A DNA stretch of 64,000 nucleotides, from contig NZ_AWNH01000115.1 of the NCBI RefSeq assembly GCF_000482245.1, positions 186,001 through 250,000 of the forward strand, read 5' to 3'. This DNA comes from Leptolyngbya sp. Heron Island J. Its GTDB lineage: Bacteria; Cyanobacteriota; Cyanobacteriia; Phormidesmidales; Phormidesmidaceae. Position numbers and translations under genes: made by a program. Below the pieces are notes generated by a model. It ran no database searches, was not told the origin of the DNA, and saw only the letters and a list, made by a program, of their open reading frames with translations. Positions 19,000-35,326 of the stretch are shown in pieces. Within the stretch, counting starts at the first letter, position 1; every line of letters begins with the position of its first letter.

Positions 19000-20442
19000 T
19001 TATGCCTGTAGCAAACTGGGATAGTAATGTTGCAACTCAGCTACAGCTTCCTCACGCATTCTCTGGCGCAATTCCAGCGGCATAATCACCTCCCCCATCG
19101 GTCGCCAGTCTCGCAGCCGCATCACACTATTGATATCCCCCAAGCGTATCCAGGCTCGATAGTAAGCATCCTGCGGATTGCGCTGGGCCAAAATCTCTAA
19201 TGCAGTGGCTTGCTCATTGACATCATCAATTTCCTGTTTAATTAACTTTGGCAATGCATCATAATCAACAGTCTCAAAGGTTTTATGCCGTTTAGTTTGG
19301 GCCACATACCGGCGAGCAAACTCAGGAGGAAACCGCATAATTAACAAACGCCGAGGTAGATAAAAATTAAACCCCCAAGCCTGATCTAAAGCAGCACTCA
19401 CATCCTCGGAAGTTGGCAGTTGTCCTCTGCGTCGTAGCTGCCGTAACGCTTCAGGCACTTGCGGATCACCCCAGGCAAATACCGTTAGCCGCGATGACAT
19501 AATTCGATCTAAACGATAGTTATGCCAGCCAAATATACCCGATGGATCATTGCCGTAGGCACTCAGGTATTTGGCTCGTCGAGAATAGTGTAAACACACT
19601 GGATAAACCGTAATAGTTGTTGTCACATCATCTGTACTATGCCAATAGTCAAACTGAATTACACCGCCGCCGCTGCGCCATAGCTGTTCGATTTGTTCTT
19701 GCAGCGTATCGACTTGTTCTTGCATTTCTTCCGACAAAATGTAATCCAGATGGATAAAGATTTGCCGATCTGGCTCTGGTGAAGCAATTGGTTGTTGATG
19801 GGTCAGCTGCTCCCATAGGGATTGCACAATTACATTTAGATTAGGTTGCACAAAGGCAATTGACTCTAGCGATCGCAACACCTCCCACGTCTGCGCCACC
19901 GACAAATTACCCAATGGCATCGGGGCATACCGTTCACTCAACGGCCAGTTTTGGGGCTCTACCTTACGAAATCGTCCCTTGCCCTCCCCAGCCAGCCAGC
20001 CCAGTTCTACCAAATGGGATAGATCATCTCGAATCGAGCGATGCACGGTGGCAAATGGACAGGTGGCCAAAGCCGTGTCTATGGCTGCTTTTGGCAGATT
20101 GCTCAGACTCATGATTTTGTGCTGCCAATCTATTAACGAAAAGGCAGGATTACTGTCCATTAACCAGGTTGATAGGGAACGCTGGCAACAACAATCAAGG
20201 TCGCAATGTGCCGTTAGCTCTGTCACCTTCGCTGTTTCACTACGGCCATGGCTGGATGCAAATAGAAGATTGCGTAAATCACCATAGCGAAATGGCTGCG
20301 GTAGCTGCTGTGCCCAAGCATCAGGTCCATAAAGCTGATGCAGCAATACCCACAGACGTACTGCCCGTAACAGTCGATCTGCTAATCGACCCTTGGCTAA
20401 GCTATGTAACAGTTCAGGTGTAGGCAGGTGGTTAAAGACCAT
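19000..20442 (-). CDS. CRISPR-associated WYL-domain regulator, TIGR03985 family
   Basis: About 480 residues from the preferred ATG at 20442, which has TAAGG five to nine bases upstream; an in-frame TTG at 20547 would add 35 residues without a binding site. The N-terminal part (LPTPELLHSLAKGRLADRLL, later DLSHLVELGWLAGEGKGRFR) looks like a winged-helix DNA-binding region. The middle part (GGGVIQFDYWHSTDDVTTTI, then YPVCLHYSRRAKYLSAYG) fits a WYL ligand-binding domain. The family occurs in cyanobacterial CRISPR loci, and WYL proteins there can repress cas or crRNA genes. It is divergent from the csx3 gene and has a palindrome 26 bases upstream. It is probably a local regulator of this island. 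Confidence 0.85.
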   Translation of the reverse strand: MVFNHLPTPELLHSLAKGRLADRLLRAVRLWVLLHQLYGPDAWAQQLPQPFRYGDLRNLLFASSHGRSETAKVTELTAHCDLDCCCQRSLSTWLMDSNPAFSLIDWQHKIMSLSNLPKAAIDTALATCPFATVHRSIRDDLSHLVELGWLAGEGKGRFRKVEPQNWPLSERYAPMPLGNLSVAQTWEVLRSLESIAFVQPNLNVIVQSLWEQLTHQQPIASPEPDRQIFIHLDYILSEEMQEQVDTLQEQIEQLWRSGGGVIQFDYWHSTDDVTTTITVYPVCLHYSRRAKYLSAYGNDPSGIFGWHNYRLDRIMSSRLTVFAWGDPQVPEALRQLRRRGQLPTSEDVSAALDQAWGFNFYLPRRLLIMRFPPEFARRYVAQTKRHKTFETVDYDALPKLIKQEIDDVNEQATALEILAQRNPQDAYYRAWIRLGDINSVMRLRDWRPMGEVIMPLELRQRMREEAVAELQHYYPSLLQA

Positions 20443-20467
20443 TGAAACCTTAACGAAAGCTTGTTTT

Positions 20468-20481
20468 GAAGACCCCTCTTC
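20468..20481. promoter_or_regulatory. Palindrome GAAGA-CCCC-TCTTC upstream of the WYL regulator
   Basis: A 5-base arm inverted repeat around CCCC, partly extended by flanking T and A runs (TTTTGAAGACCCCTCTTCTAAA). The identical 14-base core recurs at 32345-32358, upstream of the membrane CARF gene. It lies 26 bases before the regulator start and between divergent genes, which is a plausible operator position. Confidence 0.4.
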
Positions 20482-20620
20482 TAAAGTGTATGCATAATTG
20501 GCAAGAGGAAACCATATACCGGGATTAGTGGTGAAAAGATTCCACAATGCATCTGCTACATCTCAATGACATTAAAGTGTTGTGTTTATATATCTAATGT
20601 TTGCTTTTGGAGAGTGATCT

Positions 20621-21550
20621 GTGGCCGATGCTTCGATTCAACTGACGCTGAGCCATCATCAAACGACTCAAGGATTGGCGTATCAGTTGGTAACAATTGA
20701 GTTGGTGAGTCGCGATCGCATTATTGAACCGCAAGAGTTAGCAACATTGCGTTTACCGGCGGGTCTAGATCCACGCTTGGGTGTGGTGCTCTCTGGACGG
20801 GCTCCGGTCTGGCTCTATGCGTATCTGGTGCATGAATGTCATCCGACGGTGTGGGTTGCTTGTTTTGACCCACGCTTGGGGGCGGTTGTGACGACAACTC
20901 ATTCTAAACTTGTCAGTGTTGGGCAGGTGCTCCCGCTTGAGGATTTAAATTTGGGAGTACCGTCTATTCAACCTGATAAGCTGGGGCCTGCTCTATTGGT
21001 GGTGGGGCCGCCGGACAGTGGCAAGAGTGTTTTGTCTCACCAGTTGTTTGTAACTTTGGTTAAAGATTATCCGGATGTGTATTTACAACGCGCTCAATGG
21101 GATGGTGAGGGTAATTGGACATTAGATCTGCCGGAAAATGCATCCGAGCGAGAGGCATTTAAGTTGGCTAACAAAGGCACTCTGACAGAGCGATTTTTTC
21201 CGTATCAGGGGCAGGTGATTCGTAACCTGCGGCAACAAAAGTCGTTAGTGATTGTCGATGCTGGGGGAATGGTGCAACCGGAAAAGCAATCGATTCTGGA
21301 TGCTTGTACTCATTATTTGATTATTAGCTCAAAGCCTGAAGAGATTGAGCCCTGGCATGAGTTTTGTGGAAGTCAGGGGGGGGTACAGCCGATTGCAGTG
21401 ATTCACAGCACGTTAGAGACCATGATCGAAGTGTTGCAGCGTGAGCCGTTTTTGGAAGTGCGTTGTGGACCATGGGTACAGGGGGAGACCGATGGAGTGC
21501 CTGAGGTGTTAGAAGGGCAGGTGCGATCTCTAATAACAAGCGTGACGTAA
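20621..21550 (+). CDS. csx3: Csx3 ring nuclease fused to a P-loop (AAA-like) domain
   Basis: A 309-residue protein. Residues 1-110 are Csx3: LRLPAGLDPRLGVVLSGRAP (about 43-62), WLYAYLVHECHPTVWVACFD (64-83) and DPRLGAVVTTTHS. Csx3 (Crn3) degrades cyclic tetra-adenylate and so switches type III signalling off. From residue 122 there is an ATPase-like domain with P-loop GPPDSGKS (129-136) and SLVIVDAGGMVQP as a likely Walker B strand. This Csx3-AAA fusion is known mainly from cyanobacteria; the second domain has no clear role. The GTG start at 20621 has GGAGAG seven bases upstream. It is less AT-rich than the cas genes that follow and may have its own history. Confidence 0.92.
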   Translation: MADASIQLTLSHHQTTQGLAYQLVTIELVSRDRIIEPQELATLRLPAGLDPRLGVVLSGRAPVWLYAYLVHECHPTVWVACFDPRLGAVVTTTHSKLVSVGQVLPLEDLNLGVPSIQPDKLGPALLVVGPPDSGKSVLSHQLFVTLVKDYPDVYLQRAQWDGEGNWTLDLPENASEREAFKLANKGTLTERFFPYQGQVIRNLRQQKSLVIVDAGGMVQPEKQSILDACTHYLIISSKPEEIEPWHEFCGSQGGVQPIAVIHSTLETMIEVLQREPFLEVRCGPWVQGETDGVPEVLEGQVRSLITSVT

Positions 21551-21624: not shown

Positions 21625-22857
21625 ATGCCTACACTCAATGATTTTAGAAGGCGACATATCATTCTTCTAATAGGAGAAAACCCTCTTCCCAACTATGTCT
21701 CTGCAAAGCTGTTGCTACTCCCCGGTGGTACAGCACATCTCATGTGCTCAACAGCAACGCATGAAACTGCCAAGCGCTTAGGTAAAATGCTGGAATCTGA
21801 AGGATTTCAATATCAGCGCATTCAGATTTTGGATGAGGAATCTGATGGATTTAAGATTTCTAGTGAGCTTGGAAAGCATCTTGAAACTATTGGTGATCTA
21901 TCCATAGGTCTCAACTACATAGGGGGTACCAAAGTAATGGCTATCCATGCGTACCAAACGTTACTTCAAAGCAAACCTGCAGCAGTCTTCAGCTATCTAA
22001 ACCCTAGGCGTTTAGAACTTTGTATCGAGATTCAAGAAAACCGCCATGTAATCTCTTTGCCTGCATTAGATGTTGAATCGATTACGCTAGAGAAAATTCT
22101 GAAGCTGCATAATTTAAAGATACTTGATAAGCAGATAGAGCCTCATAATGCAGCAATTGCCACTGAATTTACGCAATTCTACACTGATCAAGAACTCATC
22201 AAAAAGTGGAGAAAATGGTGTGACAATACTTTGAAACAAGGAGACTGGAAAAAAGAAAAATTTCTTCAGAAAAGAGGAACACTATACATTGCTGATCTAC
22301 CCACCTCAATTCGCGATGTTCTGAATACTCATTTAGGAAGTAATAATGAGCAGATTGACTTAGAAAATGCTAAAACTCAATGTGGCTTCTCATCTCTTAA
22401 ACTACTTGCAAAATGGTTGGATGGGTTATGGCTTGAGGATTATGTTTTATCTCATGTCCAAAAAACATCATCTCAATATGGTCTACAAGAAATTGGTAGT
22501 TCCCTGAAACCTCAGGATCCTAATAAAAGAAATAAGAGCCCCAAAGAGGAACGCTTTGAGCTTGATGTTTGCTTTTTACGTGGGTATCAGCTTTTTGGAA
22601 TTGCTTGTACGACAGATTACTCACGTTCTCTCTGTAAACATAAGCTGATTGAAGCTTGTCTTAGGGCAAGACAATTGGGTGGGGATGAAGCTCGAATTGC
22701 TCTAGTCTGTGGATACCGAGATGCTGATGATTTGCGAGAAGAAGTCAGTCTGATGGGGGATGATCGGAAAATTGAAATCTTCTGTAGTTATGATTTGGAG
22801 CCAGAAGATTTTTCAGAAAAATTAGCAGCGTGGATTGAACGCAACATTGAGAATTAA
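21625..22857 (+). CDS. CARF-nuclease effector, Card1/Can2 (DUF1887) family
   Basis: A 410-residue two-domain effector. The N-terminal CARF domain shows HIILLIGENPLPNYVSAKLL (11-30) and the ligand-binding signature GLNYIGGTKVMAIHAYQTLL (95-114). The C-terminal restriction-like domain carries ELDVCFLRGYQLFGIACTT (312-330) and RARQLGGDEARIALVCGYRD (348-367); E312, D314 and K338 or K340 fit an ExD...K nuclease core. Family members bind cyclic tetra-adenylate made by Cas10 and then cut DNA and/or RNA without sequence specificity. It is separated by only one base from cas10 and is therefore the first gene of the effector operon, or the second after csx3. Confidence 0.92.
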   Translation: MPTLNDFRRRHIILLIGENPLPNYVSAKLLLLPGGTAHLMCSTATHETAKRLGKMLESEGFQYQRIQILDEESDGFKISSELGKHLETIGDLSIGLNYIGGTKVMAIHAYQTLLQSKPAAVFSYLNPRRLELCIEIQENRHVISLPALDVESITLEKILKLHNLKILDKQIEPHNAAIATEFTQFYTDQELIKKWRKWCDNTLKQGDWKKEKFLQKRGTLYIADLPTSIRDVLNTHLGSNNEQIDLENAKTQCGFSSLKLLAKWLDGLWLEDYVLSHVQKTSSQYGLQEIGSSLKPQDPNKRNKSPKEERFELDVCFLRGYQLFGIACTTDYSRSLCKHKLIEACLRARQLGGDEARIALVCGYRDADDLREEVSLMGDDRKIEIFCSYDLEPEDFSEKLAAWIERNIEN

Positions 22858-22858
22858 T

Positions 22859-24553
22859 ATGAGAGAAGTTACCTTGACTTTTATCGACACAACGGGTATT
22901 CAGCCTTATATTTTCAACAGTAATCGTCTGCGCGAAAATATAGGAGCTTCCTTTCTAGTTGAAGAATTTAGCACCACTTGGGTGGAAGCAGAGCTTAAAT
23001 CCCTGGGAGGCAAAATCCCTGATCCAGAGGTAGAGGTCAAAACGATTGAATCTGGTGCTAATGTAGAAGTCATTTATTCCGCAGGTGGGAACAGTGCCAT
23101 TCTGTTCAAAGAACGGGAGCAGGCAATTGCATTTGTTAAGAGACTCAGTTTTAAGCTTTTGCAAAAGGCTCCCGGTATCAATATAATCGTGGTACATAAA
23201 ACCTTTGATTGGGATCAAAAAACACCCACGCTCAAAGATATTTTAGATAACCTGAGAAAGACTGAGGTAGAAGCCAAGAAGAATGAGCGTCGTCCCTCAG
23301 TTCCCCAATTGGGATTAGGTGTTACTGCTGATTGTATTTCCACGCGTTTACCCGCAGTGGCGATGAGTGATTCAGACGTTGGTCAGCGTGATAGCTATAG
23401 GGTTTCTCGGGAAGTTAAGTGTAAAATCAACGCGAATAACAAGGCTAATAAAAAACTCCAGGCAGTATTTAAGCAACTTAAAAATCCCAATCAAGTTAGT
23501 TTTGACTTTCCACTAAGGCTAGACGATGTGGGTCGCACCCATAACGAATCAAGCTATGTTGCTATTGTTCATGCCGATGGTAACTCAATGGGGGAACGGT
23601 TTAAACAATGTGGTCAAGGTAAGAATAACCGTAAATTTATTACGGACATTCGTGCGTTATCCCAAAGCATCCAAGCAGCAAACATAAAAGCTCTCCAATC
23701 AGTGGTGGAGTGCTTACTGGCTTCAATTGTTCAGGGAAAATTATGGCTTGCTGATGGCGGTGAGATTCAACTGCAAAATGTCAAAGAAGGCTCAGAACAA
23801 ATTTTTCTGCCATTTCGTCCGATTGTTTTTGGTGGCGATGATACGACATTTATCTGCGATGGTCGATTAGGCATTATTTTGGCTAAAGTCTACCTTGAAA
23901 CGTTCGAGCAAGAGATGTTAGCTCAGGGTGAAAATCTTACAGCCTGCGCTGGGATCAGTATTGCTAAAGCGCACTATCCTTTTGCTCGTTCTTATGAAAT
24001 GAGTGAACGACTGTGTAAATCTGCTAAAAAGCTCAATCAGAACCAACAGGACAACACTCCATCCGGATCAGCCCTTGATTGGCATATTGCCTCTACCGGT
24101 TTATTAGGAACTTTAGATGAAATTCGCGATCGCGAATACACTGTTCCGTTAGACAGATCCAAGCCAGGCAGGCTTTATATGCGCCCAGTTTGGGTTACAG
24201 AAGATAAGCATCCGTGGCGCAACTGGCAGCAGTTTGAGCAGGTGGTTCAAGCATTTAGCTCTAAGGCTAATAGCGCAGATAGTGATTCCAGTGAACAGTG
24301 GAATCGCAATAAGGTCATTGCACTGCGAGAAGAATTGCGAGCAGGACCAGAGGCCACTGAAAATTTTCTAAAACTGTATCGTCTTGGTCAATTGCCAGGG
24401 CTTGATTCTAAATCATCTCAACTCGTTCAGGGCGGTTGGGATAGCGATGAGGGAAACCCTATTTGTGGCTACTTTGATGCAATCGAAGCCATAGATTTTT
24501 ACGTACAGCTTAAAACAGAGAACGCTTCGCCAGGGGAGGATATGCATGAGTAA
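22859..24553 (+). CDS. cas10: Cas10, HD-less, with GGDD cyclase motif (type III-D)
   Basis: The large-subunit signature protein of type III systems, 564 residues. It starts directly in a first palm-like region (TLTFIDTTGIQPYIFNSNRL) with no N-terminal HD nuclease domain. VAIVHADGNSMGERFKQCG marks the palm fold, and FGGDDTTF (GGDD at 325-328) is the intact second palm motif that makes cyclic oligoadenylates from ATP. The start is the ATG at 22859, one base after the stop of the CARF nuclease; an in-frame TTG at 22835 would overlap it. The 3' end overlaps the next gene by eight bases. DNA cleavage is not expected without HD, so the output should be signalling plus target RNA cutting by the Cas7 subunits. 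Confidence 0.93.
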   Translation: MREVTLTFIDTTGIQPYIFNSNRLRENIGASFLVEEFSTTWVEAELKSLGGKIPDPEVEVKTIESGANVEVIYSAGGNSAILFKEREQAIAFVKRLSFKLLQKAPGINIIVVHKTFDWDQKTPTLKDILDNLRKTEVEAKKNERRPSVPQLGLGVTADCISTRLPAVAMSDSDVGQRDSYRVSREVKCKINANNKANKKLQAVFKQLKNPNQVSFDFPLRLDDVGRTHNESSYVAIVHADGNSMGERFKQCGQGKNNRKFITDIRALSQSIQAANIKALQSVVECLLASIVQGKLWLADGGEIQLQNVKEGSEQIFLPFRPIVFGGDDTTFICDGRLGIILAKVYLETFEQEMLAQGENLTACAGISIAKAHYPFARSYEMSERLCKSAKKLNQNQQDNTPSGSALDWHIASTGLLGTLDEIRDREYTVPLDRSKPGRLYMRPVWVTEDKHPWRNWQQFEQVVQAFSSKANSADSDSSEQWNRNKVIALREELRAGPEATENFLKLYRLGQLPGLDSKSSQLVQGGWDSDEGNPICGYFDAIEAIDFYVQLKTENASPGEDMHE

Positions 24554-25217
24554 CTATAGCTTTTATCTTAAATTACTCAGTGACAGCACCTTTGGTCGAG
24601 GAGATGGGATTGCAGGTATTATCGATCAAGAAGTCGAGCATGATAGCGATGGTTTTCCTTTTTTACGGGGACGCACGCTAAAAGGATTGCTCAGAGAAGA
24701 ATGCGATAATTTAGTCGATGTTTTACCCCAAAGTCAAAAGGACTTTTGGCAAGACTCATTGAAGTTGCTGTTTGGTGTCCCTGGTAGTGATCTAAAAGTC
24801 ATAGGAAAAATGCAGGTGGGTGACGCCCAGTTACCAGTTGACTTACGTCGAGCTGTAGCGATTCAAATTCAGAAGAAGGAATTGACTACCTCAGAGGTTC
24901 TGAACTCTCTGACAACGCTGCGTCGGCAGACAGCCATTGACATTGAAACGGGTGTAGCTTCTGATAATAGCCTTCGTACCAACCGTGTGATTTTACGAGA
25001 ATTGGTGTTTGCAGCGTCCCTCGATTTAGATGTCGATCAAGATTGTCTGGAGGATAGTCTTTCACTACTATCAGCAGGTGCTCAAGCACTACGCCGAGTT
25101 GGCAGCGGACGTAACCGAGGGAAAGGTCATGTAAAATGCTGGATTCAGACTGAGGCTGAGACTCTGAACTATAGCGATCTCTTCTTTGACAGAATTCGGG
25201 AGATAGGTGCAGCATGA
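24546..25217 (+). CDS. cas7: Single-domain Cas7 RAMP subunit (Csm3-like)
   Basis: A 223-residue RAMP protein. The N-terminal strand SFYLKLLSDSTFGRGDGIAG is followed by FPFLRGRTLKGLLREECDNL (about 38-57), which matches the RGRTLKGLLR loop of Cas7-like subunits. The glycine-rich loop LRRVGSGRNRGKGHVKCWI lies near the C-terminus. Asp residues between 18 and 35 (GDGIAGIIDQEVEHDSDG) could supply target-RNA cleavage. It overlaps cas10 by eight bases and csx10 by four (ATGA), so translation is coupled. In the III-Dv complex of Synechocystis the equivalent Cas7 is fused to Cas5 and Cas11; here it is a free-standing gene. Confidence 0.88.
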   Translation: MSNYSFYLKLLSDSTFGRGDGIAGIIDQEVEHDSDGFPFLRGRTLKGLLREECDNLVDVLPQSQKDFWQDSLKLLFGVPGSDLKVIGKMQVGDAQLPVDLRRAVAIQIQKKELTTSEVLNSLTTLRRQTAIDIETGVASDNSLRTNRVILRELVFAASLDLDVDQDCLEDSLSLLSAGAQALRRVGSGRNRGKGHVKCWIQTEAETLNYSDLFFDRIREIGAA

Positions 25218-26818
25218 AAGTGATTAAATTTCAGATTACCAATGAGGAACCCGTTTTAGTTACATCTTTTCAAGGCGACCCTAATAGCGATGTTTCTTAT
25301 GACTACATTCCAGGTAGCACTATTCGAGGCTTCCTGATTAGTCGGTATTTGAGAGCCCATCCTGAGCTAACGGAAGACATTTTAGTTGATAAGACGGTGC
25401 GATCTCTCTTTTTTGAAACAGAGACACGGTTTTTGAATGCTTACCTAAGCACAGGAGATAAGAAACATCTACGCAGTTTACCTGCGCCGCTCACTTGGCG
25501 GCATGAAAAGGGATATGAGGATTACATTTTAGATAAAAGCTATTCCTCAATAAACGAGGATGAAGATACTGAAAATGAAAGATCACAGGATACAAAGAAG
25601 CTAGTCAGAATCGGTCAGAAATTTTGTCAGATAGTCAGACCGTCTAGCGAACACCCTAAAGTTATTCTTTATCGTCCCCAGCGTCGGATTAATATTCACA
25701 ACCGGCGTAGTCGAAAACGGGGGCGAGCGACTAAGGAAGAGGGGCAAGTTTATCGATATGAATCTTTGGAGGCGGGTCAAAGTTTTGAGGCTATTATTTT
25801 ATGCAATCAAGGGGCTGATGCCACAGTACTTGAGCAACTATTGAAGCGATCTCAAACAGCTCGCATTGGCGGATCTAGAACAGCCGGGTATGGCAAAGTA
25901 ACAATCAGCGACACAATATGCACAGATGCGGACAACTGGACTGAAGTGGGTAAACCTTTTCAATCCCGCATCAGAAAAAATGTTGCCATCACATTGCTCA
26001 GCGATGCAATTATCTGTAACGACTATGGTCAATATGTGGTTGAAGCCCCGATTCAGGCAATTGCTAATGCAATGGGAGTTGAGCAGATCAGCCAAACGCC
26101 TAAGATCTACATGGGCAGTACCTTTGTTGGTGGCTTTAATCGTAAATGGGGCTTGCCGCTGCCTCAGGTTCAAGCCGTTGCAGCTGGTAGCGTATTTATT
26201 TTTCCAGATTTAGACATTACTCCAGAACAAGCTCGTCAGCTAGAGTGGCAGGGGATTGGCGAGCGACGCAATGAAGGATTTGGCCGGGTGGCAGTAAATT
26301 GGCTGCCTGAAATGTCTGAATTTAGGGTAGAAAAACCAACCCAAACGTTAAGGGAAAAGCCCTTAGAAAAACTATCGTCAACTAGTGAAACATTAGCTCA
26401 AAAGATGGCCAGTCGATTACTCCGCCAAAAACTGGATTTGGCGTTGGAAAAAAAGTTAACAGAATGGCCCCTGAGTGGAGAGATAACTAATAGCCAACTC
26501 TCTCGACTAATGTTGGTGGCTAATCAAGCCTTAGTGGAAAAACAGCCAGATCTGATCAATCAGTTTTTTGCAAATCTCCGTTCTAATGCCAAGACTAAAT
26601 TTGAATCTCCTAAATTAGGTTCTCAACCACTTCAAAAACGTTGTCAGACTTGGCTTGAAAAGCCTAAAGATACCCTCTGGATTGATCAAAGGCTGACCAT
26701 CACAATCGCAGGTACAACAGCAGACGTGACTCAGGCCTTGGGGCAAGAATATGCGTTGCGACTAATTATTGCGATCGCACGCAAAGGCATCAAGCAAGCA
26801 GCCAAACAGGAGGGATAG
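25214..26818 (+). CDS. csx10: Csx10: Cas5-like RAMP with helical Cas11-like C-terminal domain (type III-D)
   Basis: A 534-residue signature protein of subtype III-D. The start shows the Csx10 pattern EPVLVTSFQGDPNSDVSYDY, IPGSTIRGFLISRYL and LFFETETRFLNAYLS. Two glycine-rich loops follow: GGSRTAGYGKVTI (about 216) and GERRNEGFGRVAVNW (about 347). From about residue 370 the sequence becomes strongly helical and charged (ETLAQKMASRLLRQKLDLAL, LRLIIAIARKGIKQAAK), as expected for a fused small subunit (Cas11). Its start overlaps the stop of the single Cas7 in ATGA. Cas5-like subunits cap the crRNA 5' handle. The 4-base gap to the next gene confirms operon structure. The Cas11 assignment rests on position and helicity only. 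Confidence 0.9.
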   Translation: MKVIKFQITNEEPVLVTSFQGDPNSDVSYDYIPGSTIRGFLISRYLRAHPELTEDILVDKTVRSLFFETETRFLNAYLSTGDKKHLRSLPAPLTWRHEKGYEDYILDKSYSSINEDEDTENERSQDTKKLVRIGQKFCQIVRPSSEHPKVILYRPQRRINIHNRRSRKRGRATKEEGQVYRYESLEAGQSFEAIILCNQGADATVLEQLLKRSQTARIGGSRTAGYGKVTISDTICTDADNWTEVGKPFQSRIRKNVAITLLSDAIICNDYGQYVVEAPIQAIANAMGVEQISQTPKIYMGSTFVGGFNRKWGLPLPQVQAVAAGSVFIFPDLDITPEQARQLEWQGIGERRNEGFGRVAVNWLPEMSEFRVEKPTQTLREKPLEKLSSTSETLAQKMASRLLRQKLDLALEKKLTEWPLSGEITNSQLSRLMLVANQALVEKQPDLINQFFANLRSNAKTKFESPKLGSQPLQKRCQTWLEKPKDTLWIDQRLTITIAGTTADVTQALGQEYALRLIIAIARKGIKQAAKQEG

Positions 26819-26822
26819 CCCT

Positions 26823-28298
26823 ATGGTGATTCGAGACGACCATCGAAAGATTATTAAGCGTCTGATTATTCGTGGCAACTTACATTTGATCACCCCTACC
26901 TGTTTAGGCAGTGGCGATCAAGATAGCCTAACCGATATGGCGCTACTGCGGGATAGCATTACCGAGCGGGCTTTATTACCAGGCACATCTCTAGGCGGTG
27001 CCCTACGCAACTACCTTCAAGAACGTCTCTCTGGTTATGGTCAAGAACAGAAAGTGAAGCTGTTGACTCAACTCTTCGGTGGTAAACGAGGTGACGAAGA
27101 TGGAGAACAAAGTGCGTTAGTAATCCATGACTCTATCAGCCACGAACCTCCAAAAATAGAATTTCGTGATGGCGTCAAAATTGATAGCCGTACAGGTACC
27201 GCTGTTGATGGAGCAAAATACGACCTAGAGTTGGTTGCTGCTGGGACCATTTTCCCATTGATGATAGAGCTACTCGTCGAAGACGATGCCAATTTAGCTG
27301 AGCTTAAACAAGGGCTGGCGATCTCTTTACAAGGATTAGAAAACAGCGAAATTTCCCTTGGCATCAAAAAAACACGTGGCTTTGGCCAATGCAAAGTTAC
27401 CACTTGGCAAGTCGATGAATTTAACCTAACCAATCTTGATCATTTAAAGGATTGGCTCAACTACAACAATGAAGTCTCCATTATTCCAGATGTAAATCAA
27501 CCGCCCGATATTGCTACACAATTAGACGTAAGCAATTTAACTGACGAACGCAGTCAGTTTACCCTTAGCGCCACATTTGAACTACAAGGAGGGGGCCTAA
27601 TTCGGTCTGGACAAGATGCGATGGGTATTGTCCCTGACGTAGTGCATTTGACTGCCAAACAAGATAATGGGGAAGTGAAACCCATCATCTCTGGCACTAG
27701 CTGGACAGGGGTGTTGCGACATCGAGCTGAGCGGATCTTAAATACTTTGGAGAAAGGTCAGAACGGGACAGAACTCTTAGAGTGTATTTTTGGACAGGTA
27801 CCCGAAAAGCGTATTGATACAGCTCAAGAGAAACAAGCCAGAGCCAGCCGTTTGGTTGTCCATGAAAGTCCGATTCATGATTCAGCGTCTATGGTACAAA
27901 ATCGTATCGCCATTGATCGGTTTACAGGAGGTGCATTCGATGGGGCCTTGTTTGATGAACAGCCTGTATTTGGAGGTGAAGTCACGTTGAACTTGGAGTT
28001 ACGTAATCCTTATGATCGAGACAAGGATTTACAAAAGCAAGAGATAGGCTTACTCCTATTGTTACTAAAAGATCTTTGGACTGGCGATTTACCTATAGGT
28101 GGAACTAGCAGTATTGGTCGAGGAAGGCTACGAGGAAAGGATGCAACTATTACTCAGAAAGGTAGTGAGCTAAAGCAGTGGAAAATCATACAAGAATCTG
28201 GTCAACTTCAAGTCAGTAACCTACAAGATCCATCTCAAGAACAAGAAACAACCAGGCAAGAATTAGAAGACTTTGTCAGTGCCCTGAACGCTGCCTAG
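26823..28298 (+). CDS. Double Cas7 RAMP protein (Cas7-2x)
   Basis: About 491 residues from the ATG at 26823; the frame is open further upstream inside csx10, but AGGAG at about 26809 and the 4-base gap support this start. Two Cas7 modules are visible. The first has NLHLITPTCLGSGDQDSLTD, LLPGTSLGGALRNYL and KKTRGFGQCKVTTW. The second has SATFELQGGGLIRSGQDAMG, ISGTSWTGVLRHRAERIL and GGTSSIGRGRLRGKD. Each half carries VIHDSIS or VVHESPIHDS, followed by the RTGTAVDGAKYDLE or RFTGGAFDGALFDE segment, showing an internal duplication. Fused double Cas7 subunits are typical of the III-Dv/III-D2 group and provide backbone positions with RNA-cleaving Asp residues. Confidence 0.9.
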   Translation: MVIRDDHRKIIKRLIIRGNLHLITPTCLGSGDQDSLTDMALLRDSITERALLPGTSLGGALRNYLQERLSGYGQEQKVKLLTQLFGGKRGDEDGEQSALVIHDSISHEPPKIEFRDGVKIDSRTGTAVDGAKYDLELVAAGTIFPLMIELLVEDDANLAELKQGLAISLQGLENSEISLGIKKTRGFGQCKVTTWQVDEFNLTNLDHLKDWLNYNNEVSIIPDVNQPPDIATQLDVSNLTDERSQFTLSATFELQGGGLIRSGQDAMGIVPDVVHLTAKQDNGEVKPIISGTSWTGVLRHRAERILNTLEKGQNGTELLECIFGQVPEKRIDTAQEKQARASRLVVHESPIHDSASMVQNRIAIDRFTGGAFDGALFDEQPVFGGEVTLNLELRNPYDRDKDLQKQEIGLLLLLLKDLWTGDLPIGGTSSIGRGRLRGKDATITQKGSELKQWKIIQESGQLQVSNLQDPSQEQETTRQELEDFVSALNAA

Positions 28299-28348
28299 AG
28301 AAAACACGATCAGTGAGTGTACTTATGAAATAAGTGAGAGGCATATTA

Positions 28349-28918
28349 ATGAATCAACCAGACTGTAAAATAGCTTCAATCAAAGATCTGGAGAATCTAC
28401 CACAATGGCTCGTAGCTAAGGCTAAACACTACAAGCTCAAGTATCTGCTAGCCCATGCAGAAGATGGCGTAATCTGGGGAAGATTTGATGAGGAAAGTCT
28501 GATTACTGCCGATCAGGTCTTTACAGATCTATCTCAAAAATTACCCACATTAAGATTGTCTACGCTTCAGCGCTGTCGAGCGTTTAGTCAAGCAGGCGAA
28601 TTACTTTTATGGAAATCTCGTAGTGACTGGAAATATTGTTTTACCGGCAATCTAGATGGTGATTATATTTCGGAAAAACAGATGCTTTGGGGTACTCAAA
28701 AAGTTGAAGAAGTTGAAGAAAAAGACGGTTTCACCTTGGTGAAAGACGGCTCGGAAGGATTACGTCATGCAGTGCCTTGTGTAGACATTCCTTTTTCAAA
28801 CGATCGTAAAAAGCTTAAACGGCCCCTAAGGCTAGAAGTTCATCACTACATTGACTATGACGAAGATGGTTTAGCTCGAATTAATCGTAGCCGTCTTGTT
28901 GATTTGACAACTGTTTAA
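28349..28918 (+). CDS. csx19: Csx19, TIGR03984 family CRISPR-associated protein
   Basis: A 189-residue protein from the ATG at 28349, which has GAGAGG seven bases upstream; a GTG at 28334 is also in frame. Family features: WLVAKAKHYKLKYLLAHAED (about 18-37), VIWGRFDEESLITADQVF (about 39), QRCRAFSQAGELLLWKSRSD (about 73-92) and the late RLEVHHYIDYDEDGLARINR SRL block. Csx19 is a non-RAMP subunit found in type III-D loci of the cyanobacterial kind and is part of the III-Dv complex. It has no known catalytic activity. It sits between the two large Cas7 genes, as in related loci. Confidence 0.9.
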   Translation: MNQPDCKIASIKDLENLPQWLVAKAKHYKLKYLLAHAEDGVIWGRFDEESLITADQVFTDLSQKLPTLRLSTLQRCRAFSQAGELLLWKSRSDWKYCFTGNLDGDYISEKQMLWGTQKVEEVEEKDGFTLVKDGSEGLRHAVPCVDIPFSNDRKKLKRPLRLEVHHYIDYDEDGLARINRSRLVDLTTV

Positions 28919-28931
28919 CGAGAATTAATAA

Positions 28932-31244
28932 ATGTATCCAAAACATATCTCTAAAGTCTCTGAAACTGCTCAAATACAAAGAGAAAAAGTTGGTGAAATT
29001 TCTATTTCACGAAAAGCTGTTGCAGCATATAACTTTGTGGAGCTTCCAGACAAAGTCGTTAGTGCTGAAGCCGATGTCATCTCAAAGCCTCAGAATCAAT
29101 ATCATTCTGACCTTCACTCAGGCTGTATCGACTGTACCTTGACTACAGCTTCGCCTTTATACATTCGCACTGGTTTAAATTTAGAAGAGTTTCAGCAAGA
29201 GAAAGAGGCTAAAGATTTACCTGGCTTCTATTACACCGATCCTGACACTCAAAAACCTGTACTACCAGGCAGCAGTCTAAGAGGCATAATGAGATCGCTG
29301 ATAGAAATCGTTAGTTTTTCCAAATTTTCCAAGGTTTCCGAGCAGCAGCGCTTCTTTTTTCGAGCTGTAGCAGCATTCAATGACGATCCTACGAGTAGTC
29401 TCTACAAAAATAAATTAAGTTCTAAGAATGTAAAAGCTGGATATCTAAGACATGAGAATGGGCAATGGTTTATTCAACCAGCTAGACTCATTGGAGATCA
29501 GACATTTGTTCGTATTGAGGATAAAAATATCAACTTACCTGGCTTCATCTCAATGAATGATCCTGCATACAAGCCACAATATTTTTCTAACATTAGTTTT
29601 TCTGTAGACGAAGGCAAAAAAAAGGCTACCGAGTTGAGTGCGAATCCTAATGAATTAGATTATGTAGGGACTTTGGTTACCAGCGGTAACATGAAAGAAA
29701 CAGGCGATCAGTCCTCTGGTAAGACTGATCGCAAGTATCACTACTTAATCCAGCAACCAGATTCAAAACCTCAACGCTTGAAAATTAGTGATATTGCCAT
29801 TAGAGATTACAGAAATTCACTCACTACTTTTCAGAAGTATGGCAGTAATCAAAAGGATGAAAATACAGATTCTCCGTTTAGTGAAAAAGATGGCTTTCTA
29901 AAGAAAGGACGTTGTGTTTTTTACTGTGAACCATTGGAGGGAGAGGATGTAACCTTATTTGGGCAAAGCCCTAATTTTAGAATTGCTTACTCCTTTAAAG
30001 AGTCTGGAGAATCTGCTTCTGCCGCTGATTTCGTTCCGGAAAAGCTTAAAAGTTCAGATGTCGTTGAAGTAGATATTGCTGAATCAATCTTTGGTTATGT
30101 TCGAAACAAGAAAACAAGCTGTTCTGATGAACAACAGGCACGTGCAGGCAAAGTTTTCTTCTCAGATGGCATTTGTCAAGAAGAGAATATAGAAGATATT
30201 TTCATGGTAAATAAAGCTGGAGAAGTTCCAAGAATCCTTGCCAGCCCAAAACCAACTACTTTTCAGCATTATCTTGTACAAACTAGTTCTGAAAAGAAAA
30301 AACTAAAACACTATGCCAGTATGCCTGAAAAAGATACTGTAATTCGGGGGCACAAACTATATTGGCACAAAGGTGAAGCTCCTGATATATGGCATCCAGA
30401 TTCAAAGAATGCGTCAGAAACCCAAATTACGCGCATTCGACCTATAAAACCCAACAAGGTCTTCACATTCAAGATCGACTTTGAAAATCTAAGTTCTGTA
30501 GAGTTGGGAGCATTGTTATGGATTTTAGATGTTGCTCAGCAAGACCAATATCGTCTATCCCTTGGCATGGGAAAACCCTTGGGGATGGGAGCAGTTAAAC
30601 TTACTCATGAAGTATATCTTTGCGATCGCGCCAAAATCGAAAAATCTCAATCTCGATATACATCATTATTTGAAGATAACGGTGGATGGTTCTCCGGCTA
30701 TAGTAACGTTCTTGGTCAATCAGATTTAGATGAACATACTCAAGCCTTTGAGAAACATGTGCTAAGAGCGCTTGAACAATCTGATAAATGGCAAAAGTTG
30801 AGTCAACTACGTCGCATCAAAATGCTTCTAACCATGTTGGAGTGGAAAGAAACTTTATCTGAGGATGAAGAGAATCAAAAACGGTATATGGAAATTGAGC
30901 GTGATAGTAAAGAGAGTCATATTATCGTTAATTCTCCAAAACCAAATGATGCAAAAATCAACGAGTATAGTGAACGCCCGATACTGCCAAATCCACTCCA
31001 AGTGGCTGGAGAAGTAACAAGACCTAAAACTTTTACAGAGGGAATGAAACTGGAAGCTAGAGTGTTAGAAAAAAAGAAAAAGGGAAGTAAGGTTAAATAC
31101 GAAATTTTCAATGAACATTATAATGAGGGAGAGAAAAAGTCTTTTAGCAAAATTCCAGATGAAGGGATGGTAATAGTTGAAATCAGGTCCTTGAAAGAAG
31201 ATGGCAGCATTAATCACGTTAAGTTTGTCAGGACTATTGAATAG
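28932..31244 (+). CDS. Large Cas7-insertion RAMP protein, TIGR03986 family
   Basis: A 770-residue RAMP protein. The Cas7 motifs are spread out: HSGCIDCTLTTASPLYIRTG (about 57-76), LPGSSLRGIMRSLIEIVSFS (about 113-132), a segment with AESIFGYVRNKKTS and ARAGKVFFSDG (about 380-415), and LGMGKPLGMGAVKLTHEVYL (about 545-564), the glycine-rich loop. Long insertions between them explain the size, as in the Cas7-insertion subunit of III-Dv. The last 70 residues (LEARVLEKKKKGSKVKYEIF) look like a small beta-barrel, possibly RNA-binding. Base composition is clearly AT-rich compared with chromosomal neighbours. It is the last gene of the effector operon. Confidence 0.9.
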   Translation: MYPKHISKVSETAQIQREKVGEISISRKAVAAYNFVELPDKVVSAEADVISKPQNQYHSDLHSGCIDCTLTTASPLYIRTGLNLEEFQQEKEAKDLPGFYYTDPDTQKPVLPGSSLRGIMRSLIEIVSFSKFSKVSEQQRFFFRAVAAFNDDPTSSLYKNKLSSKNVKAGYLRHENGQWFIQPARLIGDQTFVRIEDKNINLPGFISMNDPAYKPQYFSNISFSVDEGKKKATELSANPNELDYVGTLVTSGNMKETGDQSSGKTDRKYHYLIQQPDSKPQRLKISDIAIRDYRNSLTTFQKYGSNQKDENTDSPFSEKDGFLKKGRCVFYCEPLEGEDVTLFGQSPNFRIAYSFKESGESASAADFVPEKLKSSDVVEVDIAESIFGYVRNKKTSCSDEQQARAGKVFFSDGICQEENIEDIFMVNKAGEVPRILASPKPTTFQHYLVQTSSEKKKLKHYASMPEKDTVIRGHKLYWHKGEAPDIWHPDSKNASETQITRIRPIKPNKVFTFKIDFENLSSVELGALLWILDVAQQDQYRLSLGMGKPLGMGAVKLTHEVYLCDRAKIEKSQSRYTSLFEDNGGWFSGYSNVLGQSDLDEHTQAFEKHVLRALEQSDKWQKLSQLRRIKMLLTMLEWKETLSEDEENQKRYMEIERDSKESHIIVNSPKPNDAKINEYSERPILPNPLQVAGEVTRPKTFTEGMKLEARVLEKKKKGSKVKYEIFNEHYNEGEKKSFSKIPDEGMVIVEIRSLKEDGSINHVKFVRTIE

Positions 31245-31312
31245 CTACTTATCCTAGTGCCTGCGTTTGTGAGAGCAATATTGCTTAATAGCCTTAAACT
31301 CACTATAACGAT

Positions 31313-31571
31313 ATGAAAGGTAGTCGTTTTTTAGAAAAAGCTAATGATCCTGGCCAAAACTGGGTGATGTATTTCCTGGTCGGTATTTTGGGCTTGGGCA
31401 TCCTAGGCGATGGTATCCAGCTTGATTCTAGAAGACCTGGCTAGCTGGTTAGCGCAACAAATCGGTTTGCCAAAGTTGTTGGTGCAATGGGTAATGGTGG
31501 TCGCGATCGCAATCGAAACACTAGCAAAACAAGTATCCTGGCTCGAACACCAACCTCTGCCGCTGCAGTAA
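31313..31571 (+). pseudogene. Frameshifted small membrane protein gene
   Basis: From the ATG at 31313 the first frame reads MKGSRFLEKANDPGQ, then NWVMYFLVGILGLGILGDG, then hits TAG after 43 residues. Shifting by one base near 31410 gives a good continuation: VSSLILEDLASWLAQQIGLP, KLLVQWVMVVAIAIETLA, ending at TAA 31569-31571. The joined product would be about 86 residues with two membrane helices. It lies between the large Cas7 gene and the membrane CARF gene. I do not recognise the family. It is most likely a decayed CRISPR accessory gene, but a sequencing indel or programmed frameshift cannot be excluded. Confidence 0.5.
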
Positions 31572-31586
31572 TGCTTAGGAAGCCCT

Positions 31587-32300
31587 TTAGCGCTTCGCTG
31601 ATTTCACACTGGATCTAAGAGCAATCTCGATGGGTGTCATGGACTCGTTCGAACAATTGGGATTGACTGGCGTATATTGCAAAGGAGCCTTCGGTGAGAG
31701 GCTAGCCAGCACCATACCGACCGAACCATGAGCCGTCATGCCAGTATAGTCAGCCATAACCTGCTGTGGCGTCCAGCCAGTGGGTAGCTGGCCATAAATA
31801 CGGCGAATATGTTGAAAAAACTCCATCGGGTCATAGATATCATTCACATGAATCAGTTTGAAACTAATGCGATTACCAGAATACGTATCAGCAATTGCAA
31901 CTGCCATGGCTTTAGTTTGGTCTGAATGCAGCAGCCAACAACGCTCTAAGCGATCAGCATGATGCTGGATAGCAACGCGACAAGGTTCTTCGCGACTAAC
32001 CAGCAAAATCAAACCACGATGCTTGATAGGGGTGCGAGCATCAGCCAGCGTCTCAGGCTCTAGTTGTTTTAGACCTCTAGCAAATAACAGCACCGACAAG
32101 AGAAATATTAACAGGGAACCGATCGCCAACTGGATGGCGGCGGCTAACGCATTCTTATCGTTAAGGTCAGTAACCAGGGAAAACAAAACCTCCCAAACAG
32201 CACTTCCCAACACCGCTAGAAAAATAGACCCAATTAGAAAGGGTAACAAGGTTTCAGGATTAAAGAAAATAGACGCAGCTTTGGAAAAGGGCGATCGCAT
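31587..32300 (-). CDS. Two-TM CARF-domain membrane protein (candidate Cam1-like effector)
   Basis: A 237-residue protein. Two hydrophobic helices (about 18-43 and 51-75) are followed by a short basic loop and a Rossmann-like domain (94-215). HRGLILLVSREEP is the first strand, CWLLHSDQT the second, and ADYTGMTAHGSVGMVLAS (183-200) matches the position of the CARF D-x-TGGTK ligand loop, with changed residues. Cam1, a known effector of this type, has a membrane helix and a CARF domain and depolarises the membrane on binding cyclic tetra-adenylate. A two-helix version may form a different pore. It is transcribed against the effector operon, with a perfect palindrome 39-64 bases upstream. The CARF call is by pattern only. 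Confidence 0.7.
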   Translation of the reverse strand: MRSPFSKAASIFFNPETLLPFLIGSIFLAVLGSAVWEVLFSLVTDLNDKNALAAAIQLAIGSLLIFLLSVLLFARGLKQLEPETLADARTPIKHRGLILLVSREEPCRVAIQHHADRLERCWLLHSDQTKAMAVAIADTYSGNRISFKLIHVNDIYDPMEFFQHIRRIYGQLPTGWTPQQVMADYTGMTAHGSVGMVLASLSPKAPLQYTPVNPNCSNESMTPIEIALRSSVKSAKR

Positions 32301-32338
32301 AGAATTTTCTGATCAAACGATATACCCAGTCTACTCTT

Positions 32339-32364
32339 AGCTTGGAAGACCCCTCTTCCAAGCT
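32339..32364. promoter_or_regulatory. Perfect 11-base inverted repeat, candidate operator
   Basis: AGCTTGGAAGA (32339-32349) and TCTTCCAAGCT (32354-32364) pair perfectly around CCCC. The inner 14 bases equal the palindrome upstream of the WYL regulator at 20468-20481. It sits upstream of the membrane CARF gene and before the reverse transcriptase remnant. No T tract follows, so an operator is more likely than a terminator. Confidence 0.45.
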
Positions 32365-32417
32365 GATGGCTTAATAGAGGAGAGTAGATAAAACGATGCC
32401 ATGGTAGATCGGCTGTG

Positions 32418-32660
32418 TATCTGGATGATTTTGATGAGACGCTATAGGAAACTCGGTTTAAGCTGGTGCGGTTTGCCGATGATTTTGTGGTGATGGGGCG
32501 TTCTCAGCGGCAGGTGGAGCAGGCTCAAGGGCAGGTGGCTAAACTACTGGATGCGATCGGGTTACAGCTCCATCCAGAGAAAACCAAAATCACGAATTTT
32601 GATCGAGGCTTTCGCTTTTTAGGTCATACCTTTGTCAAAAACCTTAGACAAAAACGGTAG
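32418..32660 (+). pseudogene. Reverse transcriptase remnant of an RT-Cas1 fusion
   Basis: Frame reading from 32418 gives YLDDFDETL, an in-frame TAG at 32445-32447, then ETRFKLVRFADDFVVMGRSQ with the RT catalytic FADD motif, then LLDAIGLQLHPEKTKITNFD and RGFRFLGHTFVKNLRQK, and a stop at 32658-32660. This corresponds to the last part of the RT palm and the start of the thumb. The fingers and first palm motifs are missing upstream. The cas1 frame opens immediately after (TVEVPIREVERILVF) with a shift of one position. RT-Cas1 fusions acquire spacers from RNA in type III systems; this one cannot make a functional RT. Confidence 0.85.
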
Positions 32661-32692
32661 AAGTACCCATTCGGGAGGTAGAACGGATTTTA

Positions 32693-33574
32693 GTGTTTGG
32701 TAATTGTCAGCTGACTACCCAGGTAATTTCGGTGTGTTTGGAACAGCGGATTACGGTGGTCTACTTGACCCAGATGGGGGATTATAAGGGCCATTTGTGG
32801 AGTGCTGAGGCGGCAGGGATGCAGGCGGTGATGGCGCAGTTTGAGCGGCAGCAAGATCCGGTATTTTGTCTGGAGACGGCCCGTGCCATTGTCACTGGCA
32901 AGGTACAAAATTCCAGACAATTGTTGTTACGGTTGAATCGCAAGCGAAAAATAGACATCGTTGCGGAGATAATTCAAGGGCTAAATAATGACCTGGAAGC
33001 GGTGGCCATCGCAAATGAAATCAATGGGTTGCGCGGGCATGAAGGTGCAGCTGCCGCGCGATATTTTAAGGCATTGGGCCAGCTGATTGTGAATCCAGGG
33101 TTTGGGTTTAAGGGGCGTCATCGTCGGCCACCGATAGATCCGACGAATTCGTTGTTAAGCTTTGGCTATACGCTGCTGCATAATTATATTTTGAGTTTGA
33201 TTTTGGCGGAAGGGTTAACTCCGTATTTGGGGAATTTGCACGGGTCTGAACGCAAGCAAACGTTTTTGGCATTTGATTTGATCGAGGAGTTTCGGTCTGT
33301 CATTGTAGATGCCCTTGTCATTCGGTTAATTAATCGAAAATCGATTAGCCCGACGGACTTTACTTGGCCCAATCAGCAAGGGGGCGTTTACTTACAGGGA
33401 ACAGCTCGAAAGTTATTTTTACAGCGTTTTGAGGATCGACTGAGTCAGCCTGTCTTGCATGAAGATGTTGTAGATATGGTGTCTTATCGGCGGGTGATAC
33501 AGCTTCAGGTGAGGCGATATAAACAAGCTGTTTTGAATAATACAAGCTATGGCGTTTATCGTAGGCCAAATTGA
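32693..33574 (+). CDS. cas1: Cas1, N-terminally truncated (from a former RT-Cas1)
   Basis: The catalytic domain of the Cas1 integrase is complete: GLRGHEGAAAARYFKAL (catalytic Glu 117), LLHNYILSLILAEGLTPYLG, NLHG (His 183) and FDLIEEFRSVIVDALVIRLI (Asp 195). The N-terminal beta domain is shortened. The Cas1 frame opens at 32648 after a stop and begins VEVPIREVERILVFGNCQLT, so about 25 usual leading residues are gone. The first possible start is the GTG at 32693; GGGAGG at 32673-32678 is 14 bases away, longer than ideal. Whether a stable Cas1 is made is uncertain. The stop overlaps the cas2 start (TGATG). Confidence 0.7.
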   Translation: MFGNCQLTTQVISVCLEQRITVVYLTQMGDYKGHLWSAEAAGMQAVMAQFERQQDPVFCLETARAIVTGKVQNSRQLLLRLNRKRKIDIVAEIIQGLNNDLEAVAIANEINGLRGHEGAAAARYFKALGQLIVNPGFGFKGRHRRPPIDPTNSLLSFGYTLLHNYILSLILAEGLTPYLGNLHGSERKQTFLAFDLIEEFRSVIVDALVIRLINRKSISPTDFTWPNQQGGVYLQGTARKLFLQRFEDRLSQPVLHEDVVDMVSYRRVIQLQVRRYKQAVLNNTSYGVYRRPN

Positions 33575-33849
33575 TGTTAGTGCTGGTGGTATATGACATT
33601 CCTGATGATAAGCGGCGAACTAAGCTGGCTGCGTTTTTGGAGGGCTATGGTCGTAGGGTGCAGTACAGTGTATTTGAATGTTTTTTGACGCTTCGAGAAA
33701 TGGAGGGATTACATCAGGCGATAGAATGGCGGGTCAATGCAGATGAGGATGATGTTAGGTTGTATTGGATTGCTAAGGATGCGTTACCTAGGACGTTGAC
33801 TATTGGGAGTTCACCGCCTGAGCCACTGCCCAGTGCGTATATTATCTAA
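33574..33849 (+). CDS. cas2: Cas2
   Basis: The Cas1 partner in spacer integration, 91 residues from the ATG at 33574. Motifs: MLVLVVYDIPDDKRRTKLAA (beta 1 with the conserved Asp), FLEGYGRRVQYSVFECFLTL, and VRLYWIAKDALPRT. It is intact and of standard length. The ATG overlaps the cas1 TGA, so translation depends on cas1 translation. It lies directly before the leader and array. Confidence 0.95.
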   Translation: MLVLVVYDIPDDKRRTKLAAFLEGYGRRVQYSVFECFLTLREMEGLHQAIEWRVNADEDDVRLYWIAKDALPRTLTIGSSPPEPLPSAYII

Positions 33850-34097
33850 ATGTTAAATTTCGGCTAGTGGCTTTTTTGTACGTTATTATGTTGCCTATAT
33901 GGGCCACGGGCCACTTCAGGTTGGACCTTGAAAACCTTATAGTTTCGTTGTGAAGTGGCGGGACCTTATTTCGTCAGGGTTTCGCTAGGCAATAATTGGG
34001 CTTCATGCTTTTTTTGAGTGTGGTTTAAGCTGTAGATTTCTGAAGTGGCGTTTTGCTATATTGGAATGACCGGCTGGCAAAGGCTCTGAAAAAGTGC
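33850..34097 (+). promoter_or_regulatory. CRISPR leader with repeated TGAAGTGGCG motif
   Basis: The region between cas2 and the first repeat is about 248 bases, AT-rich and without an ORF. TGAAGTGGCG occurs at 33951-33960 and 34041-34050, exactly 90 bases apart, and GCCACTTCA, the inverse of its first nine bases, at 33910-33918. The leader is placed here because the opposite end of the array holds the degenerate repeats. It should contain the array promoter and sites for integration. Confidence 0.6.
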
Positions 34098-35326
34098 CTT
34101 TCATTTCCAAAACCCCGCAAGGGGACGGAAACAATGGTAACTCAACAGTTTGATTAGTTCCTCTTTCATAACTTTCATTTCCAAAACCCCGCAAGGGGAC
34201 GGAAACGCAAGTTATTGAACACATCAACCCATAGTAAAACAGCACTTTCATTTCCAAAACCCCGCAAGGGGACGGAAACACAGTAATAACAGCAATACCC
34301 ACTAGACCTTTTGTCAACCTTTCATTTCAAAAACCCCGCAAGGGGACGGAAACAAAGAATGCATCACTCAAGTATAGGTCTAGGTCTAGGTCCTCTTTCA
34401 TTTCCAAAACCCCGCAAGGGGACGGAAACCTGCAAGCGTATTGGTCCGGTCCTCTAAGGCTGCATTGACCTTTCATTTCCAAAACCCCGCAAGGGGACGG
34501 AAACCATCAACAACCATGGTTGCCCCGCGCAGGTAGGAATTATTCTTTCATTTCCAAAACCCCGCAAGGGGACGGAAACGCGATCGCGAAGCCGACAAGA
34601 AAAGTGGCAACGAACTTAAGTCTTTCATTTCCAAAACCCCGCAAGGAGACGGAAACATAATCGTCGGCAGGTACATCAAAAAACTGTGCCAAGGTTCTTT
34701 CATTTCCAAAACCCCGCAAGGGGACGGAAACTATAGATTCCTGTGATGGGGATCTCAGAAGGAAGTGCCCACTTTCATTTCCAAAACCCCGCAAGGGGAC
34801 GGAAACTCGGAACACCATCAACTAGGCCAACTGTGAGTGTCTCGCCTTTCATTTTCAAAACCCCGCAAGGGGACGGAAACCAACATATTGCTGTTGTATA
34901 GCGGCTTCAAGGCATCTTTCATTTCCAAAATCTCGCTAGGGAACGGAAACGAGAATTAAATTGCCATAGGCAGCATTAGTTGCATTAGTCTTTCATTTTC
35001 AAAACCCCGCAAGGGGACGGAAACTCAAAACTCAACCCCCAAGGGGTTAGGAAAAGGGCTGCTACTTTCATTTCCAAAACCCCGCAAGGGGACGGAAATG
35101 CTAGAAGTTCCAGTTTGACCAGGGTCTTGAGAAAGTACTTCTTTCATTTCCAAAACCCCACAAGGGGACGGAAACCCAGAGCTATTACCCACAATGGGAA
35201 ACTCTCCCGAAACGTCTTTCATTTTAAAAACCCCGCAAGGGGATGGAACTGGTTGGGAAGCCCATGGTCGAAGGGTTTAGAGATAGTCAGTCTTTTATTT
35301 CTAAAACCTCGCAAGGGGGCAAAATG
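34098..35326 (+). CRISPR. CRISPR array, 17 repeats and 16 spacers
   Basis: The 35-base repeat begins CTTTCATTTCCAAAA, continues CCCCGCAAGGGG and ends ACGGAAAC. The centre forms a CCCC/GGGG stem with a GCAA (GNRA) loop, and the 3' end gives an ACGGAAAC-type 5' handle for crRNAs. Repeats start at 34098, 34172, 34245, 34319, 34395, 34470, 34545, 34622, 34697, 34772, 34846, 34916, 34990, 35065, 35141, 35216 and 35292. Spacers are 35-42 bases, mostly 39-41. Single changes occur in the repeats at 34319, 34622, 34846, 34990, 35065 and 35141; those at 34916, 35216 and 35292 are clearly degenerate. Transcription is rightward from the cas2 side. Confidence 0.98.

What the first reader, a model, noticed from the sequence alone, without database searches (positions are those of the whole stretch)
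32418..33574. Decayed RT-Cas1: RT fragment, stop, frameshift and truncated cas1
The RT piece keeps FADD and part of the thumb but lacks fingers and first palm motifs, has TAG at 32445 and ends out of frame with cas1. The Cas1 N-terminal strands are missing, yet all catalytic residues (E117, H183, D195) and cas2 are intact. The island has lost RNA spacer acquisition and possibly all acquisition.
Basis: partly seen in the sequence, partly recalled or inferred. Interest (0 to 1): 0.6.

Follow-up and report, generated by a model that had tools for sequence, protein, structure and literature searches.

The report
Recently broken RT-Cas1 adaptation gene
In this cyanobacterium, the gene that lets a CRISPR immune system record new invaders (including RNA ones) has recently been wrecked by two deletions, while the part that reads old memories looks intact; this is ordinary gene decay, although relatives show the same module being damaged again and again.

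Summary
Window 32414-33574 is the remnant of one RT-Cas1 fusion gene, collinear with the orthologue in Leptolyngbya sp. PCC 7375 (77% and 72% DNA identity, split by a deletion). Three lesions are visible: about the first 200-220 RT codons are gone; TAG at 32445; and a second deletion replaces 328 nt of the orthologue by 12 nt, removing the RT end, the linker and Cas1 residues 1-26 and shifting the frame. Predicted Cas1 strands beta1-3 are deleted, and beta4-5 also go if the first usable start (GTG 32693) is used. E117/H183/D195 and cas2 are intact. The only other Cas1 in the genome is a distant type I-D one. RNA spacer acquisition is lost, and probably all acquisition by this module.

The damage is recent: the cas1 remnant has no stop and keeps all 47 clade-invariant residues, and the first ten repeats carry two substitutions. 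The type III-D effector operon is open throughout, so the locus is best read as read-only CRISPR memory.

Two corrections: CRISPR RTs lack a canonical thumb, and RT loss alone need not stop DNA acquisition; the Cas1 truncation matters. In the five-member Cas1 clade holding the window, four RTs are damaged, each differently.

The parts
32414..32635 (+). RT remnant: collinear with PCC 7375 RT-Cas1; keeps the FADD block and what follows up to GFRFLGHTF; the RT N-terminal half is missing
   Evidence: blastn to L047 12815-13036, 77.5%; RVT_1 151-205/205; protein alignment
32445..32447 (+). In-frame TAG in the RT remnant (the orthologue has CAG, Q)
32636..32647 (+). Junction: 12 nt stand in place of 328 nt of the orthologue (L047 13037-13364); net -316 nt, frame lost; CAAAAAC occurs twice across the junction (32636, 32649)
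32648..33574 (+). cas1 remnant, open frame from Cas1 residue 27; first common start codon GTG 32693 (Cas1 residue 42); active-site E, H, D kept
33571..33849 (+). cas2, complete
   Evidence: Pfam CRISPR_Cas2; 76% identity to PCC 7375 Cas2
33850..34097 (+). Leader region between cas2 and the array
   Evidence: sequence
34098..35326 (+). CRISPR array, 17 repeats of 35 nt; the first ten carry 2 substitutions in total, the last two are degenerate
31587..32300 (-). Membrane CARF protein (CARF8, TM + CARF), divergent from the RT-Cas1 remnant; a membrane protein also adjoins RT-Cas1 in L049, L050 and L053
   Evidence: PADLOC CARF8--CARF_TM E=2e-107; ORFs
32339..32364 (.). Perfect 11-bp palindrome AGCTTGGAAGA-CCCC-TCTTCCAAGCT in the divergent promoter region; candidate operator
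19000..20547 (-). WYL regulator of CRISPR loci
   Evidence: PADLOC WYL E=7e-167
20621..21550 (+). Csx3-AAA
21625..22857 (+). CARF-PDDEXK nuclease (Card1/Can2-like)
22835..24553 (+). Cas10 with GGDD motif
24546..25217 (+). Cas7/Csm3-like (III-D)
25214..26818 (+). Csx10 (Cas5, III-D)
26769..28298 (+). Cas7-IIId
28334..28918 (+). Csx19
28932..31244 (+). Cas7-IIId, large

Best explanation
This is a recently inactivated RT-Cas1 adaptation gene of a type III-D CRISPR-Cas island. Shown: one deletion removed the RT N-terminal half; a second removed the RT end, the linker and the first 26 Cas1 residues and put cas1 out of frame; a TAG interrupts what is left of the RT. Inferred: no reverse transcriptase can be made, so RNA spacers can no longer be acquired. 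If cas1 is translated at all it starts at GTG 32693 and lacks five of the six predicted strands of the N-terminal beta-domain, so Cas1-Cas2 integrase is unlikely to assemble and acquisition has stopped. Effector genes, leader and array remain, so the locus probably still uses its stored spacers (crRNA processing by one of three Cas6 proteins encoded elsewhere) without adding new ones.
For: Collinear DNA alignment to the PCC 7375 orthologue with a 328-to-12 nt gap; protein alignment with three longer RT-Cas1 proteins; Cas1 model with strands 2-6, 12-16, 19-23, 30-33, 37-43, 62-66, of which residues 1-26 are deleted; only two Cas1 genes in the genome, the other type I-D-like at 32% identity; no other RT of this family; every III-D effector gene gives an open, well-scoring ORF; three Cas6 genes elsewhere. 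Recency: RT remnant pN/pS 0.12 and cas1 0.15 against PCC 7375; 0 of 47 invariant residues changed and no stop in cas1, limiting neutral evolution to about 0.02-0.03 substitutions per site; 2 substitutions in the first ten repeats.
Against: The strong conservation of the cas1 remnant would also fit a truncated protein that is still used. A GGGAGGT lies 13 nt upstream of GTG 32693. No reads, expression data or close strains were available. The structural claim rests on a seven-sequence AlphaFold model of the orthologue (pLDDT 85).
Confidence: 0.82

Rival explanations
1. The truncated Cas1, started at GTG 32693, still works with Cas2 as an RT-free, DNA-only integrase.
For: Cas1 remnant fully open, all invariant residues kept, no significant rate excess (Tajima chi2 at most 1.9 over eight outgroups); SD-like GGGAGGT upstream; RT-deleted Mm RT-Cas1 acquires DNA spacers (PMC11014452); RT-less Cas1 relatives exist.
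Against: Nearly all the RT-less relatives recovered with upstream sequence keep the complete Cas1 N-terminus (exception L112, where it lies in another frame of a draft MAG). Here three strands are deleted and two more lie upstream of the only common start codon. The conservation is explained equally well by a recent lesion.
Confidence: 0.1
2. Sequencing or assembly artefact.
For: Draft genome in 119 contigs; reads not available.
Against: The lesion is two separate structural losses plus a nonsense codon, not a homopolymer slip, inside a 346-kb contig of a 99% complete genome. No intact second copy is found anywhere in the genome.
Confidence: 0.04
3. The fragments are a group II intron RT scrap that lies by chance next to an ordinary solo cas1 that never had an RT.
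For: The genome holds twelve or more group II intron-type RTs; RT-less Cas1 genes occur in related cyanobacteria.
Against: The RT remnant is 78% identical to the RT of the PCC 7375 RT-Cas1 fusion but at most 44% to any group II intron-type RT in this genome, and it is collinear with the fusion gene. Window Cas1 is sister to the PCC 7375 RT-Cas1 (100% support).
Confidence: 0.01

Closest known systems
RT-Cas1 of Leptolyngbya sp. PCC 7375 (L047/L057)
   Same: Orthologue; 79% Cas1 identity over 293 aa; same cas1-cas2-leader-array order; similar 35-nt repeat
   Different: Open reading frame over 620 aa with the Cas1 N-terminus intact, but its own RT lacks about the first 84 residues; no III-D effector genes beside it and no close Csx10 in its genome
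Cyanobacterial RT-Cas1 fusions (Silas 2017 branch 5 or Toro 2017 cyanobacterial RT-CRISPR clades 3/5)
   Same: Domain order RT-Cas1 without Cas6, next to cas2, array and a type III module
   Different: Intact members have complete RT and Cas1 in one frame; which published clade number applies was not tested here
Marinomonas mediterranea RT-delta-Cas1 (engineered)
   Same: Cas1 without a working RT; a laboratory analogue of RT loss
   Different: There Cas1 is complete and still acquires DNA spacers; here Cas1 is truncated as well (PMC11014452)
Thiomicrospira Cas6-RT-Cas1 with Cas2 (7KFT/7KFU)
   Same: Solved relative of both halves
   Different: Carries Cas6; complete; distant in sequence

Membership tests
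RT-Cas1 fusion (functional) | RT domain with fingers and palm blocks in one frame with Cas1 | tested here: not met
   Only the FADD block onwards remains, with a TAG and out of frame with Cas1
RT-Cas1 fusion (functional) | Complete Cas1 including the N-terminal beta-domain | tested here: not met
   Residues 1-26 deleted; common start only at residue 42
RT-Cas1 fusion (functional) | Cas1 active-site Glu, His, Asp | tested here: met
   E117, H183, D195
RT-Cas1 fusion (descent) | Orthology with an RT-Cas1 gene | tested here: met
   Collinear with PCC 7375; sister in the Cas1 tree with 100% SH-aLRT
RT-Cas1 fusion (functional) | Acquisition of spacers from RNA | not testable with these tools
   Needs an acquisition assay
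Type III-D CRISPR-Cas | Cas10, Csx10 (Cas5), several Cas7/Csm3-like genes, Csx19 | tested here: met
   PADLOC best hits Cas10, Cas7_IIId, Cas5_IIId, Csx19
RT-less Cas1 of the same clade | Stand-alone complete Cas1 without an RT beside it | tested here: not met
   Cas1 truncated and an RT remnant present

The most novel reading that the evidence does not exclude
In this cyanobacterial lineage the RT half of RT-Cas1 is repeatedly and independently broken or lost while Cas1 is usually kept, i.e. RNA acquisition is a dispensable add-on that is shed faster than DNA acquisition. The window is one step further, with Cas1 now lost as well, leaving a read-only type III-D system.
Probability: 0.5. Interest if true: 0.45.

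Novelty: new member of a known kind. Interest (0 to 1): 0.3.

Why it matters
It catches a CRISPR system soon after it lost the ability to learn while its effector side remains, and it sits in a clade where four of five RT-Cas1 genes are damaged in different ways. That makes it possible to test from sequence alone whether RNA spacer acquisition is hard to maintain in nature. The individual locus is ordinary decay.

Tried and rejected
Search for a second copy of the RT or Cas1 in the genome: none of this family. The 32300-32420 palindromic stretch as a dispersed mobile repeat: it is single-copy in the genome, so it was not taken as a deletion-mediating element. Rfam over 31200-35600: nothing. 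Protospacers in phage records: no credible match (best E=0.4, 29 nt). pN/pS as a clock for the loss: synonymous sites are saturated, so a bound from invariant residues, stops and repeat mutations was used instead. Two loci first scored as RT-damaged (L089, L098) were re-read as intron-containing after Rfam hits.

Full report
Setting. The window lies in a 346-kb contig of an 8.06-Mb, 99% complete cyanobacterial genome. The nearest named relative with the same gene is Leptolyngbya sp. PCC 7375, placed in the same genus by the tool (G004/L047; named through L057, 100% identical).

Observation. Both halves of the finding are real. The RT remnant begins at about 32414, keeps FADD, has TAG at 32445-32447 and ends at TAG 32658-32660. 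The Cas1 frame is different, open from 32648, with its first ATG/GTG/TTG at GTG 32693. In that numbering E117, H183 and D195 are present. Cas2 is complete.

Mapping the lesions. Blastn to the orthologue gives two collinear blocks: 32414-32635 to L047 12815-13036 (77.5%) and 32648-33848 to L047 13365-14568 (72.2%). Between them 328 nt of the orthologue are represented by 12 nt, a net loss of 316 nt that breaks the frame; it takes the RT end, the linker and Cas1 residues 1-26. Upstream, homology stops at about 32414, so about the first 200-220 RT codons of full-length relatives are gone. The orthologue has a glutamine codon where the window has TAG.

Consequence for Cas1. An AlphaFold model of the orthologous Cas1 (pLDDT 85, pTM 0.72; closest folds are known Cas1 structures) puts N-terminal strands at 2-6, 12-16, 19-23, 30-33, 37-43 and 62-66. 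The first three are deleted in the DNA; the next two are lost if translation starts at GTG 32693, which corresponds to residue 42. A GGGAGGT lies 13 nt upstream of that GTG, so some translation cannot be excluded. That a protein without these strands cannot form the Cas1-Cas2 complex is inference.

No backup. The genome has two Cas1 genes; the other, at C93, sits in a type I-D-like operon and is 32% identical. The RT remnant's next best matches in the genome are group II intron-type RTs at no more than 44%. The exact repeat occurs only in this array.

What remains. The operon 20621-31244 matches type III-D: Csx3-AAA, a CARF-PDDEXK nuclease, Cas10 with GGDD, three Cas7/Csm3-like proteins, Csx10 and Csx19, with a WYL regulator and a membrane CARF protein at its flanks. 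Three Cas6 genes lie on other contigs. Interference is therefore plausible, but expression is untested.

Timing. Against PCC 7375, pN/pS is 0.12 in the RT remnant and 0.15 in cas1, with synonymous sites near saturation: both pieces were under purifying selection for nearly all of the divergence. Cas1 keeps all 47 residues that are invariant in its relatives, has no stop, and shows no significant excess of changes. Simulated neutral drift gives that outcome with probability 0.07 at 0.02 and 0.02 at 0.03 substitutions per site. The first ten repeats carry two substitutions in 350 nt. Both point to a recent loss, or, for cas1, to continuing constraint.

Wider pattern. Eighty Cas1 relatives were fetched and their RT state scored by tblastn and open frames. 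In the Cas1 tree the window groups with PCC 7375 (RT lacks its first ~84 residues), SIOISBB (RT frameshifted), C42_A2020_086 (RT only from residue 172) and Kaiparowitsia implicata (intact): four of five damaged, each differently, with Cas1 complete in all but the window. RT-less Cas1 genes also occur in this part of the tree. The label counts need at least six changes for 'damaged' on starred branches. Cautions: the tree is a quick one, several loci are draft MAGs in which frameshifts may be errors, and counts of changes do not by themselves separate gain from loss. Silas 2017 reports fissions, recombination and effector-less RT loci in this group (PMC5513706); I did not find this recurrent damage described in the papers searched, which is a limited search.

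Verdict. Decay confirmed and recent; RNA acquisition lost; all acquisition probably lost; interference probably kept. Known kind of event, moderate interest because of the recurrent pattern.

Noticed in passing
window 20467-20482 and 32344-32359: Palindrome GGAAGACCCCTCTTCC occurs at exactly two places in the window at up to 2 mismatches (0.02 expected): at the WYL/csx3 divergent promoter and between the membrane CARF gene and the RT-Cas1 remnant. Similar palindromes lie near RT-Cas1 5' ends in L053, L060, L066 and L069 (about 15-fold denser near RT starts, but only 3 against 6 hits). Candidate operator of the WYL regulator.
   Followed up: partly
L098 about 6240-8620; L089 about 7990-8631: Group II introns (Rfam RF00029 domain V) interrupt the RT of RT-Cas1 just after the YADD codons in Okeania sp. 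SIO2B3 (with an intron-type RT ORF) and Calothrix sp. PCC 7103 (no such ORF found).
   Followed up: partly
L158 (C38:44027-45051), L159 (C21 about 102040-103030), L160 (C12 about 27976-28310): Three further arrays in the same genome with related repeats ending GGGGACGGAAAC and no recognisable cas genes beside them; they may have depended on the same broken module.
   Followed up: partly
L047 16151-18397: PCC 7375 keeps a WYL gene and a Csx3 match split into pieces beside its RT-Cas1 island, without III-D effector genes: the opposite half of the island was lost there.
   Followed up: partly
L118 582-1544: Leptolyngbya sp. SIO4C5: RT residues 3-155 run in frame into Cas1 from residue 127, another internal deletion of RT-Cas1.
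   Followed up: no
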